A DNA stretch of 64,000 nucleotides, taken from positions 372,001-436,000 of the forward strand of contig JAEWIS010000031.1 of assembly GCA_023386955.1 (NCBI GenBank), written 5' to 3'. Below, one piece after another: positions 56,806 to 60,601 of this stretch; the first letter of the stretch is position 1, and each line of letters begins with the position of its first letter. The DNA comes from Bacillota bacterium. Lineage in GTDB: Bacteria; Bacillota; Bacilli; Paenibacillales; NBRC-103111. The position numbers and the translations under genes were made by a program. The notes beneath the pieces are model-generated. The model was given only the letters and a program-made list of their open reading frames with translations. It was not told the origin of the DNA and searched no databases.

Positions 56806-58274
56806 TCACATAAAATCATTCAGCACCACCGAATAGATATCCTCGGTGAGATGCAGCGCCCCGTCATATCCCACATAGGATTTGCTCATAACCAGATGGT
56901 TGCCCACCGGTGCAGCGATGGACAGCTGGTACGCCTTCAGGTCCCGGGCCACTACCCGCTCCCAGGAGCTGCCCAGAATCAGCGGCCGGCTCCTGATCTT
57001 GATTTTGCGCAGCTCCTCCTCCACAAAACCTCCATCGTTGGAGAAAACCGTTTCCGCTGTAATGCCGTTGTTGAACCTGGCAAACTCCGCCGCCACTCCC
57101 GCCTGATGCCGCTGTGGGGTGTCCTCGGTAATAAACTGCTTCTCCGGGATCAGCCCCAGATCATTGGTCAGAAACCGGGCCATCCCCAGTGCATACAAAC
57201 TGTCTGCCACCGTGATAAACCGCCGTGGCAGGAGCCGGGTCTCCAGCAGCGTGTCCGCCGCCCGCTCCAGATAATAATAGTAGCGGTTCTCCTTAGCTTC
57301 TGCACAATTTCCTCCAGTTCAGGGGCGGCAAGCTCCTTTTGCTCGGCCAAATACTTCTCTACTTCCTGCTGCTTGCCCACCACGCTGCCCAGCCTCCGGA
57401 GCCAATCGTCGAACCCGTTGATTCCATGGGGCTGCAGTGCCGTCACATAAGGAACGCCGAACTTCTGCTCCAGCCCGTTGCCCAGGTATCCGCCCAGCGT
57501 ACCGCAAATGCTGATGGTTGCTGCCGATTCTGACCATCGTTCAATTTGTTCAATGGAGCTGTAGGGAATCCCGAACTGGGGCACCAAGCCCAGCCGTCCG
57601 AAAATTTCCGTCACCGCTGCCCGGCCGCTGGCCGTAAAGTTAATCACATTCACCACCTCGGGACGTTTCCGCTCCGGCGGCTGAATCACCCGGGTGAGTA
57701 GCGCATGGAAGGCCGAATCAAAGCCGGAAGCCCAGATTTGAGAGCGGAAGCCGTCGCAGAACACGGGAACCACCGGAATGCCAATCTCCGCTTCGGCATC
57801 CTTCAGCGTGGCCTCAATATCGTCCCCGATAATTCCCGAGGCACAGGAGGTCGTAACGAAGATCACTCTGGGGTGAAACCGTTCATAGGCCGCATGAACC
57901 GCCTCCTTGAGGATTTTGTCCCCGCCGAACACAACGGCCTTTTCCGTCATGTTGGTATTGATAATCTGCACATTCTTCTTCTCCCAGCCCCGGATATGCT
58001 GTCCCCATTGATAACCGGCATTGGCTCCCGCCACATCTCCGGCGCAGCCTACAGGCCCGTGATTAACAATCGCCGCATCGGTAATGCTGGACAAATACCC
58101 CTGGGCGCAGCCGGCATTGCAATTGGTAGCTTGGCTGAATCCCCGGTTGGCATTCTTCAGGCAGCCGGATTGGGATTTCTCCGCCAGGTCCTTGATGCTC
58201 CCCCGGTAGCCTACCACCGACTTCAACCGTTTTTCCCGGATGACCACCTGTGACCGTTTCAAATTTATCGCCAT
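56806..58274 (-). pseudogene. NifD/NifE-like nitrogenase component 1 protein, frameshifted
   Basis: About 488 residues if one missing base near 57295 is restored, the usual length for a component 1 subunit. The first frame runs 58274 to ~57292 and the second continues from there with KENRYYYYLERAADTLL. Cysteines at the expected cluster positions are Cys52/Cys56 (NCNAGC), Cys77 (HGPVGCAG) and Cys144 (TTSCASGIIGDDIE). Cys257 (SICGTLGGYL) aligns by spacing to the cofactor-binding Cys of NifD. The C-terminal block is YVGYDGA, where NifD has His before GFDG. GGAGG lies before the ATG, which overlaps nifH by ten bases. No second component 1 gene follows. Function is unknown; it may be dead or a sequencing error may have split it. 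Confidence 0.8.
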
Positions 58275-59131
58275 GTATACGCCTCCTTCTCCTCATCCTC
58301 CACCACACCGAAATCAATCAATAGCCGCTCCAGCTCATCCATATCGATGGGAGTGGGAATCGTCAGCTTGTCGTTGTACAGGATTTTCTCCGCCAGCTGC
58401 CGGTATTGGCCGGTCTGGTCATGGCCCGGATTGTATTGGGTAACCGTCATCCGCCTCAGCTCTGCATGCTGCACCACATTGTTGCGGGGGACAAAATGGA
58501 TCATCTGGGTATTGAGCCGCCGGGCCAGCTCCGTGATCAGCTCATCCTCCCGGTCCGTATTGCGGCTGTTGCAGATGAGCCCGCCCAGCCGCACACCTCC
58601 GCTGTGGGCATACTTCAGAATGCCACGGGCGATATTATTGGCGGCATACATGGCCATCATCTCCCCGGAGCAAACAATGTAGATTTCCTGCGCCTTGTTT
58701 TCCCGGATGGGCATGGCGAATCCCCCACAAACCACATCACCGAGCACATCATAAGAGATGAAATCCATCTCGTCATACGCACCCTGCTCCTCCAGAAAGT
58801 TAATGGATGTGATGATGCCCCGTCCTGCACAGCCTACCCCAGGCTCCGGCCCCCCAGATTCCACGCAGCGGATGCCGCCGAAGCCGGTGGCGACTACATC
58901 CTCCAGCTCCAGATCCTCTACCGTCCCCCGCTCCGCCGCCAAATGAAGCACCGTCTGCTGGGCTTTGGTATTCAAAATCAGCCGGGTGGAGTCCGCCTTG
59001 GGATCGCAGCCCACAATCATAATTTGTTGGCCGAAGGATGTGGCCAGCTGGGCCAGCGTATTCTGTGACGTGGTGGATTTGCCGATGCCGCCTTTTCCGT
59101 AAAATGCGATTTGCCTCAGTTTTTTGGTCAT
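58265..59131 (-). CDS. nifH: Nitrogenase reductase-like iron protein NifH
   Basis: A 288-residue homodimeric ATPase carrying one 4Fe-4S cluster, which passes electrons to a component 1 partner. The P-loop is GKGGIGKST (12-20). Cluster ligands are Cys101 (GCAGRG) and Cys135 ([10 protein letters not shown]). Arg104 corresponds to the regulatory ADP-ribosylation site. [10 protein letters not shown] and [15 protein letters not shown] are intact. By eye it is much closer to true NifH than to BchL or CfbC. GAGGGAG lies six bases upstream of the ATG. It sits between a binding-protein gene and the NifD-like gene. One NifH does not show nitrogen fixation, because nifDK and nifENB are not here. Confidence 0.92.
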
Positions 59132-59158
59132 GACAGTCTCCCTCGCTTAGCTGTATGG

Positions 59159-60259
59159 TTAGTCCGCCTTATCAAAATCAGTGACAATCAGATCAGCTAC
59201 CTTCAACTGATCCTTCTTCAATGCTCCCGACACCACCAGATCGTCGATCCACGGCTGGATCAGCTTATCCGCAAATCTCTTGCCGGTATAATAATAGTGA
59301 ACGGCATTGACGGGCTGGCCAATATAATCGGCTGTGAGTTGGATCGCTTCCTCTTCATGCTTCGTATCGACAATCCAGGATTGGGCTTTTTTCACGGCTC
59401 TTACGAAGCCTTGCACGGCCTCCGGGTTTTCCTTAATGAATTTTTCGGTGAAATAATAGAAGGTTGTTCCCGCTGCTTCTCCCAGACCCGTATCCGCCGT
59501 ATCGAAGATTTCAATCAGGCCGGAATCCTTGGCCAGCTTGTAGAACGGGGGATGTACCCCCACAATGTCGATATTGCCCTGCTGATTGGCCTGCAAAGCG
59601 GCAGTATCACTGTCGAAGGCAACGAACTTGATTTGATTCCGGTTAAAGCCCAGATGGTCAAACGCACGGGTGGCGATGAAGGTGGTGCAGCTGGGAACGG
59701 TGCCGTTGATGGTGATTTTCTCCCCCTTTTTCTTCTGTACCAGCTCCTCCAGGGACTTTACCCCCAGCTTGGGGCTGACATAATACTTCATATGGTGGTA
59801 CTTGTCATCCACGCCCTCCACAGGCTCCGATCCGCCGATGGTGACCCCCTTGATCTTCGCCCCGCCTGCAATGAAGGTGGCAATCTGATTGACATGCGCT
59901 GTGGATACGTTATTGGTGCCGTTCAGGATGGAGGGCAGCACCTGAGCGGTGGTCAGCTCTCCCGTATACTCCACATTGATTCCTTCCTCGGCAAAAAAGC
60001 CTTTTTTCTCGGCAATTACCCATAGGGTGGAGGAGCAGTTTTTCTTGGTATCCGTTTTGATGGTATACACCGGCTTGCCGGATTTGGCCGGGTCGAAGCT
60101 GGCATTCTTCAGCTCCTTAAAGCCGGCAGCCCCCTCAATATCGATTCCTTTTTTGGTCTTGCCAAAATAACTCCCCGCCCCGATGCCGACACCAATTAAC
60201 GCCACCACTGAAAGAATCACCGCTTGTTTTTTTACTGAATCTCGCCATCTCCACTTCAC
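59159..60259 (-). CDS. NrtA/SsuA/TauA-type ABC substrate-binding protein
   Basis: A 366-residue periplasmic-type binding protein of the NMT1/SsuA-like family, whose members bind nitrate, sulfonates, taurine or thiamine precursors. An N-terminal helix (about 12-32) has no lipobox Cys, so it is probably a membrane anchor. Family blocks: AEKKGFFAEEGINVEYTG, ITINGTVPSCTTFIATRAF and GNIDIVGVHPPFYKLA. The start is GTG with only a weak ribosome binding site. It is the first gene of the nifH/nifD-like operon, but no permease or ATPase follows. It may deliver or sense the compound that the NifH/NifD-like pair reduces; the ligand is unknown. Confidence 0.85.
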   Translation of the reverse strand: MKWRWRDSVKKQAVILSVVALIGVGIGAGSYFGKTKKGIDIEGAAGFKELKNASFDPAKSGKPVYTIKTDTKKNCSSTLWVIAEKKGFFAEEGINVEYTGELTTAQVLPSILNGTNNVSTAHVNQIATFIAGGAKIKGVTIGGSEPVEGVDDKYHHMKYYVSPKLGVKSLEELVQKKKGEKITINGTVPSCTTFIATRAFDHLGFNRNQIKFVAFDSDTAALQANQQGNIDIVGVHPPFYKLAKDSGLIEIFDTADTGLGEAAGTTFYYFTEKFIKENPEAVQGFVRAVKKAQSWIVDTKHEEEAIQLTADYIGQPVNAVHYYYTGKRFADKLIQPWIDDLVVSGALKKDQLKVADLIVTDFDKAD

Positions 60260-60356
60260 CTATCATTTAATTCTTTTTAAGTTAAAATATTACATAATTA
60301 TGCGCATGAATTCCCCTCCGCTGCCCTCCTCTCCGGCGGTTCTCTATTTATGTAAA

Positions 60357-60402
60357 TTAAAAAGAGACTAATCCATCTTCCACAGGGAAGGGAATAGTCT
60401 CC
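60357..60402 (-). promoter_or_regulatory. Terminator-like hairpin in the operon leader (possible attenuator)
   Basis: On the minus strand GAGACTATTCC pairs with GGATTAGTCTC (one mismatch), with an inner CTTCC/GGAAG stem, followed by TTTTTAATTT. It lies about 100 bases upstream of the binding-protein start. A small CCAG/CTGG hairpin precedes it. A TTGACA at 60481-60486 could be the -35, but no good -10 is at the right distance. Known SAM-I or T-box signatures were not seen. Confidence 0.5.
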
Positions 60403-60601
60403 AGCTAACTGGTCAACTTATTATATTCCGATAATTTTGATGTGTTTTATGTATATTAGCTTAGCCTACGGATATAGCTTTGTCAACGTTGGAAACAAGC
60501 CCAAACCATCATTTCGATTAATTGTAACTTTTTCCTGAACCTATGGTGGGAGGCCTGGGGCACCCTCGATGATGTCCGATGGCCGAGTTTGAAGAGCCGT
60601 T

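What the first reader, a model, noticed from the sequence alone, without database searches (positions are those of the whole stretch)
56806..60407. Minimal nitrogenase-like operon: binding protein, canonical NifH and one NifD/NifE-like protein
Known nitrogenases and their relatives need a component 1 made of two related subunits. Here one D/E-like protein accompanies a very NifH-like reductase, without nifK, nifE/N or nifB, and the first gene is an SsuA/NrtA-type binding protein. That points to reduction of an imported small compound, possibly an organosulfur or nitrogen compound, by a homo-oligomeric component 1, or to a cassette that lost its partner. I do not recognise this exact architecture.
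Basis: partly seen in the sequence, partly recalled or inferred. Interest (0 to 1): 0.75.

Follow-up and report, generated by a model that had tools for sequence, protein, structure and literature searches.

The report
Broken copy of nitrogenase-like genes
What looked like a minimal one-subunit nitrogenase-like operon is a copy of a known nitrogenase-like gene set from which about 1.3 kb is missing, so that the front of one subunit gene runs out of frame into the back of its partner; it is most likely a recently broken copy, not a new kind of enzyme.

Summary
The binding protein (59159-60259) and a true NifH (58265-59131) are present and intact. The "one NifD/NifE-like protein" is not one protein: 57294-58274 encodes residues 1-327 of a D subunit, and 56806-57291, in another frame, encodes residues 277-437 of its K partner. 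Both remnants still show dN/dS of 0.035-0.038 against YN15, so the loss is recent or an error in the record; reads are needed to decide. Intact relatives are group IV nitrogenase-like DK, closest in the PDB to methylthio-alkane reductase MarD, and keep its P-cluster cysteines and cluster-binding Cys and Arg-His in 75 of 75 D and 73 of 73 K examined. Many lie beside SsuA-like binding proteins and ABC permeases. The NifH belongs with Paenibacillus nif-operon NifH. As a finding it is ordinary; the intact family, of no function that I found in print, is the better lead.

The parts
59159..60259 (-). SsuA/NMT1-type substrate-binding protein with an N-terminal membrane anchor-like stretch (366 aa), intact
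   Evidence: Pfam NMT1 and NMT1_2, SsuA_fam below cut-off; 92% identical to the YN15 protein over the aligned part; dN/dS 0.058
58265..59131 (-). NifH, nitrogenase iron protein (288 aa), intact
   Evidence: over the TIGR01287 nifH cut-off; in one clade with Paenibacillus NifH, 12 rows, support 100/100
57294..58274 (-). N-terminal fragment (residues 1-327 of about 495) of a group IV NflD subunit
   Evidence: PF00148 positions 1-281; 97% identical to P0005 over 327 columns; dN/dS 0.038
57168..57293 (-). out-of-frame tail of the D frame after the junction, to its stop codon (41 residues)
   Evidence: frame compared with intact D relatives
57284..57296 (.). approximate place of the D-K junction, where about 1,315 bp of the relatives' sequence are missing
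   Evidence: BLAST coordinates and base-by-base comparison with YN15 and G011
56806..57291 (-). C-terminal fragment (residues 277-437 of 437) of the NflK partner, in a different frame from D
   Evidence: PF00148 positions 279-398; matches K of YN15 and G011; dN/dS 0.035

Best explanation
Shown: the locus descends from a cassette of binding protein, NifH, NflD and NflK beside trxB, as still found in Paenibacillus sp. YN15. About 1.3 kb is missing, from codon 328 of D to codon 276 of K, and the two remnants are in different frames, so as recorded no complete component 1 can be made here. Inferred: in intact relatives the set works like methylthio-alkane reductase. NifH passes electrons, with ATP hydrolysis, to a D2K2 protein that holds a P-cluster and an [Fe8S9C]-type cluster, and this reduces a small compound, perhaps an organosulfur compound, captured by the binding protein. 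In this sequence that function is lost. The binding protein and NifH can still be made, and NifH could still serve another enzyme if the host has one.
For: Two frames with D and K halves. Complete D followed by K in YN15 and a D end followed by complete K in G011. About 1,315 bp missing against both, a length not divisible by three. Window 39370-64000 is otherwise largely collinear with YN15, so the loci are orthologous. K next to D in 74 of 80 loci. MarD (PDB 9FMG) is the best PDB match of the D family, 514.6 bits against 193.7 for the best NifD. Cluster ligands kept in 75 of 75 D and 73 of 73 K. Binding proteins within 6 kb of D in 12 of 25 close loci.
Against: The remnants show no relaxed selection, so a record error cannot be excluded without reads. 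1 of 80 related loci (L076, a distant one) shows D with no K in 10 kb upstream and 2.4 kb downstream. The reaction and substrate are inference only. The association with binding proteins was counted with Paenibacillus queries and so favours close relatives.
Confidence: 0.85

Rival explanations
1. The 1.3 kb is missing only from the record (assembly or sequencing error), and the strain carries an intact H-D-K set.
For: dN/dS of the D and K fragments is 0.038 and 0.035, no higher than for the intact neighbours (0.058-0.087). The source reads and genome are not available.
Against: No long shared repeat at the two breakpoints in YN15 that would explain a misjoin. The region is otherwise collinear with YN15.
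Confidence: 0.13
2. It is a true minimal system in which one D-like protein forms a homo-oligomeric component 1.
For: CfbD shows that a homodimeric component 1 can exist (PMC11423573). A few related loci have a D not directly followed by K (6 of 80).
Against: The D frame lacks the last third of the protein, including the conserved Arg-His pair, and K remnants follow it. Of the 6 exceptions, 2 end at a contig edge, 2 have K about 4.2 kb upstream in the same cluster, and 1 is an extra D beside a D-K pair.
Confidence: 0.01
3. D and K were fused into one working chimeric subunit, and the frame break is a one-off error in the record or is bypassed by the ribosome.
For: The join lies within about 14 residues of homologous positions of the two paralogues, so a read-through product would have about the length of D.
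Against: No such chimera is seen in the 80 loci. It would lack the three conserved K cysteines and the Arg-His pair. The frames differ in the record.
Confidence: 0.01

Closest known systems
Group IV NflDK3 of Heliophilum fasciatum and the nifDK-like pairs of Paenibacillus (PMC9147875, PMC3961195 and PMC4246453, passages or sections read)
   Same: D of YN15 is 55% identical to the H. fasciatum protein that I map to NflD3, and the window fragment falls in the same clade. The roles of NflDK2-4 are called unknown.
   Different: This copy is truncated and fused out of frame. The mapping of NflD numbers to genes is mine, from gene order.
Methylthio-alkane reductase MarHDK (PMC12552129, passages read; PDB 9FMG)
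   Same: Best PDB match of the D family. The family keeps MarD's cluster ligands Cys270 and His429 with Arg428, and the P-cluster cysteines.
   Different: Separate clade from the Mar-type D in the tree (quick tree). No activity known. The window copy has lost the Arg-His pair and the K cysteines.
Isethionate reductase IsrBHDK with SsuCAB (PMC11423573, abstract and several sections read)
   Same: A nitrogenase-like enzyme that works with an SsuA-type importer.
   Different: IsrD keeps one of the three P-cluster cysteines; the D family here keeps all three.
NifH of Mo-nitrogenase in Paenibacillus
   Same: The window H lies in the Paenibacillus NifH clade. Three nifH copies of P. sabinae complement a Klebsiella nifH mutant (PMC3961195 and PMC4246453 passages).
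   Different: Here it sits beside a group IV DK remnant and not in a nif operon.
CfbCD (F430 biosynthesis)
   Same: Has a NifH-like reductase and a D-like component 1.
   Different: CfbD works as a homodimer without K; the family here has K beside D in 74 of 80 loci.

Membership tests
Group IV nitrogenase-like DK (NflDK3 type) | D groups with group IV D proteins and apart from NifD/NifE | tested here: met
   Tree of 40 rows, window D fragment with P0005 and YN15_D (SH-aLRT 99), NifD and NifE outside (quick method, long branches for Nif rows)
Group IV nitrogenase-like DK (NflDK3 type) | Complete D and K subunits | tested here: not met
   Window keeps D 1-327 and K 277-437 only
Methylthio-alkane reductase (Mar) | MarD ligands Cys270, Arg428, His429 and P-cluster cysteines | tested here: not met
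   In the window D keeps Cys52, 77, 144 and 257, but the Arg-His pair and the three K cysteines lie in the missing part. In relatives all are kept (75 of 75 D, 73 of 73 K)
Methylthio-alkane reductase (Mar) | A MarB-type radical SAM protein next to HDK | not tested
   None among the flanking window proteins scanned; the relatives' neighbours were not scanned for it
Methylthio-alkane reductase (Mar) | Cleaves methylthio compounds | not testable with these tools
   Needs an assay
Isethionate reductase (Isr) | IsrD with a single P-cluster cysteine | tested here: not met
   Three cysteines kept in D, window fragment included; IsrD feature from PMC11423573
CfbCD-like homomeric component 1 | No K partner | tested here: not met
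   K remnant in the window, K beside D in 74 of 80 loci
Nitrogenase iron protein NifH | Over NCBI's nifH cut-off and within the NifH clade | tested here: met
   441.7 vs 394.35 bits; 12-row Paenibacillus clade that holds nif-operon NifH, 100/100
SsuA aliphatic sulfonate-binding proteins | Over the SsuA_fam cut-off | tested here: not met
   58.9 vs 163.5 bits; ligand not testable here

The most novel reading that the evidence does not exclude
In intact relatives (Paenibacillus, Clostridium, Sporomusaceae and others) this is an undescribed import-and-reduce system: an SsuA-like binding protein with paired ABC permeases feeds a Mar-like D2K2 reductase that carries a P-cluster and an [Fe8S9C]-type cluster, and in some Paenibacillus it draws electrons from a NifH copied from the Mo-nitrogenase operon. 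The Arg-His pair proposed as a hallmark of methylthio-alkane reductase would then mark a wider group of enzymes whose substrates are not known.
Probability: 0.35. Interest if true: 0.55.

Novelty: new member of a known kind. Interest (0 to 1): 0.2.

Why it matters
It removes a tempting but false case of a one-subunit nitrogenase-like enzyme and shows how a deletion between neighbouring D and K genes can pass for a minimal operon. It also points to an intact family that keeps MarD-like cluster ligands and often sits beside importer genes, which could be tested in culturable Paenibacillus.

Tried and rejected
Homo-oligomeric D: rejected, because D is truncated and a K remnant follows. A single D with a simple frameshift: rejected, because the downstream piece aligns with K and not with the D C-terminus. 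Regulation: only a tmRNA and a tRNA reach Rfam's thresholds in the window. A GlnR-like site with one mismatch at 60481-60497 is one of 19 such matches in the window, where shuffles give 12.5 on average and 3 of 100 give 19 or more, so I give it little weight. Promoter-like sites: 6 found, 4.7 expected; terminator-like: 12 found, 8.1 expected. Plasmids: 251 records match, none over 80% of the query; the 20 listed match the nifH part. The FMN-binding, ApbE and RnfD-like genes at 54096-56430 are not counted as part of the cassette: no relative of them at E <= 1e-8 in the 170 loci then held, and YN15 has no match there. Search of 104 genomes of YN15's family: only YN15 itself and G011 hold a D at E <= 1e-150.

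Corrections: the family labelled ATP is a permease. The reference proteins picked were partly antisense frames and were picked again. The TrxB row was out of register and is not used. The dN/dS comparison rests on one relative. The H tree's bootstrap had not settled. NifH lies within 6 kb of D in 7 of 25 close loci and 28 of 55 more distant ones, so an adjacent H is not a fixed part of the close group.

Changed on checking: the distance of K from D in L009 and L010 (about 4.2 kb), the length range of D relatives, the count of aligned relatives, and the odds of the best explanation and of the record-error rival, now stated as 0.85 and 0.13.

Full report
What is there. On the minus strand the window carries trxB (60920-61867), a binding protein (59159-60259), NifH (58265-59131) and nitrogenase component 1 sequence (56806-58274). 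The last region is not one gene. The frame that starts at 58274 runs 368 aa and matches PF00148 positions 1-281; a second frame that ends at 56806 matches positions 279-398.

The second piece is K, not D. The intact D relatives are mostly 485-510 aa long (772 hits, 120 listed). In an alignment of the window frame with 33 of these 120, the relatives continue past residue 327 with a conserved sequence that the window lacks. The 164-residue piece read from 57300 is 95.7% identical to the end of the K protein of Paenibacillus sp. YN15. By position the window keeps D residues 1-327 of 495 and K residues 277-437 of 437 (the start of K is my choice).

Comparison with relatives. In YN15 (L001) the order is trxB, binding protein, NifH, a decayed piece of a second binding protein, D (495 aa) and K. 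Genome G011 has the end of D followed directly by a complete K on one contig, and trxB, the binding protein and the start of NifH on another. Against both, the window lacks about 1,315 bp between D and K (BLAST coordinates), a length that breaks the frame. Window 39370-64000 is otherwise largely collinear with YN15 L001 3730-20995, except that about 7.8 kb (48969-56804) have no match at this place in YN15 and about 0.5 kb of YN15 between H and D is missing in the window.

How general D-K pairing is. In 74 of 80, K lies next to D. The six others: L020 and L034 end at the contig edge; L009 and L010 have K about 4.2 kb upstream in the same cluster, with transporter genes in between; L006 has an extra D beside a D-K pair; L076, a distant one, shows no K in the DNA held. 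All seven loci titled Paenibacillus (L001-L005, L018, L075) have K next to D.

Age. Against YN15, dN/dS is 0.038 for the D fragment and 0.035 for the K fragment; for the intact neighbours it is 0.060 (NifH), 0.058 (binding protein) and 0.087 (TPR protein). The loss is therefore recent, or the record is wrong; I cannot decide without reads. No long repeat is seen at the two breakpoints in YN15. The join lies within about 14 residues of homologous positions of D and K. Decay of such copies is seen elsewhere: C. tyrobutyricum (the genome behind L007) has a second copy in pieces with stops.

What the intact system is. In a quick tree the D fragment groups with P0005 and YN15_D, in a clade that holds the H. 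fasciatum protein I map to NflD3, apart from NflD1, the Mar-type NflD5, NflD2/4, NifD and NifE (no bootstrap). The D family matches MarD (PDB 9FMG) over nearly its full length at 514.6 bits and the best NifD at 193.7 bits. In that alignment MarD's Arg428-His429 falls on the family's Arg-His pair. Among the 80 loci, 75 of 75 D proteins (at least 450 bits and 440 aa) keep cysteines 52, 77, 144 and 257 and Arg413-His414, and 73 of 73 K proteins (at least 450 bits and 400 aa) keep cysteines 12, 36 and 101. PMC3961195 and PMC4246453 state that some or all of these ligands are not conserved in Paenibacillus NifD/K-like proteins (passages and sections read); those papers treat several paralogues together.

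Neighbours. At 150 bits or more and within 6 kb of D, relatives of the binding protein occur in 12 of 25 close loci and 1 of 55 more distant ones, and of the permease pair in 14 of 25 and 5 of 55. The queries come from Paenibacillus, so the contrast is inflated. The permeases are of the BPD_transp_1 family. Neither the window nor YN15 at this locus has them; YN15 has a 71% identical one near another D-K pair. The window NifH lies in a Paenibacillus clade of 12 rows (100/100) that includes NifH of nif operons, as judged from gene order.

Literature. Group IV enzymes with known roles are Mar (PMC12552129, passages), Isr (PMC11423573, abstract, sections 3, 9, 17 and part 1 of section 12) and Cfb (from the same introduction). 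The H. fasciatum paper (passages) calls the roles of NflDK2-4 unknown. Four paper searches listed no paper, by title and abstract, that gives this family a function; most subscription journals are not in that library.

Verdict. The locus is a broken copy of a known kind of gene set. The claim of a minimal one-subunit system is not supported. The intact family deserves an experiment.

Noticed in passing
window 54096-56430: FMN-binding protein, ApbE flavin transferase and NQR2/RnfD-like membrane protein in a row: a possible flavin-based electron-transfer set, in DNA with no match at this place in YN15.
   Followed up: partly
L001 9543-10000: A decayed second binding-protein gene between NifH and D in YN15, absent from the window; tandem binding proteins occur in L009 and L010.
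   Followed up: partly
genome behind L007 (G010), contig 29, 32247-33389: A second D/K copy in pieces with stop codons in C. tyrobutyricum: decay of this family is not unique to the window.
   Followed up: no
L006 1053-6397: D-K-H-D order: a second complete D without a K of its own, the nearest thing to a D-only gene among close relatives.
   Followed up: no
window 49027-53894: Two large proteins with fibronectin type III domains, one pectate-lyase-like, downstream of the locus, next to a glycosyl hydrolase 88 gene (47850-48893) shared with YN15.
   Followed up: no
window 5945-6306: tmRNA gene on the minus strand, 181 bits in Rfam.
   Followed up: no
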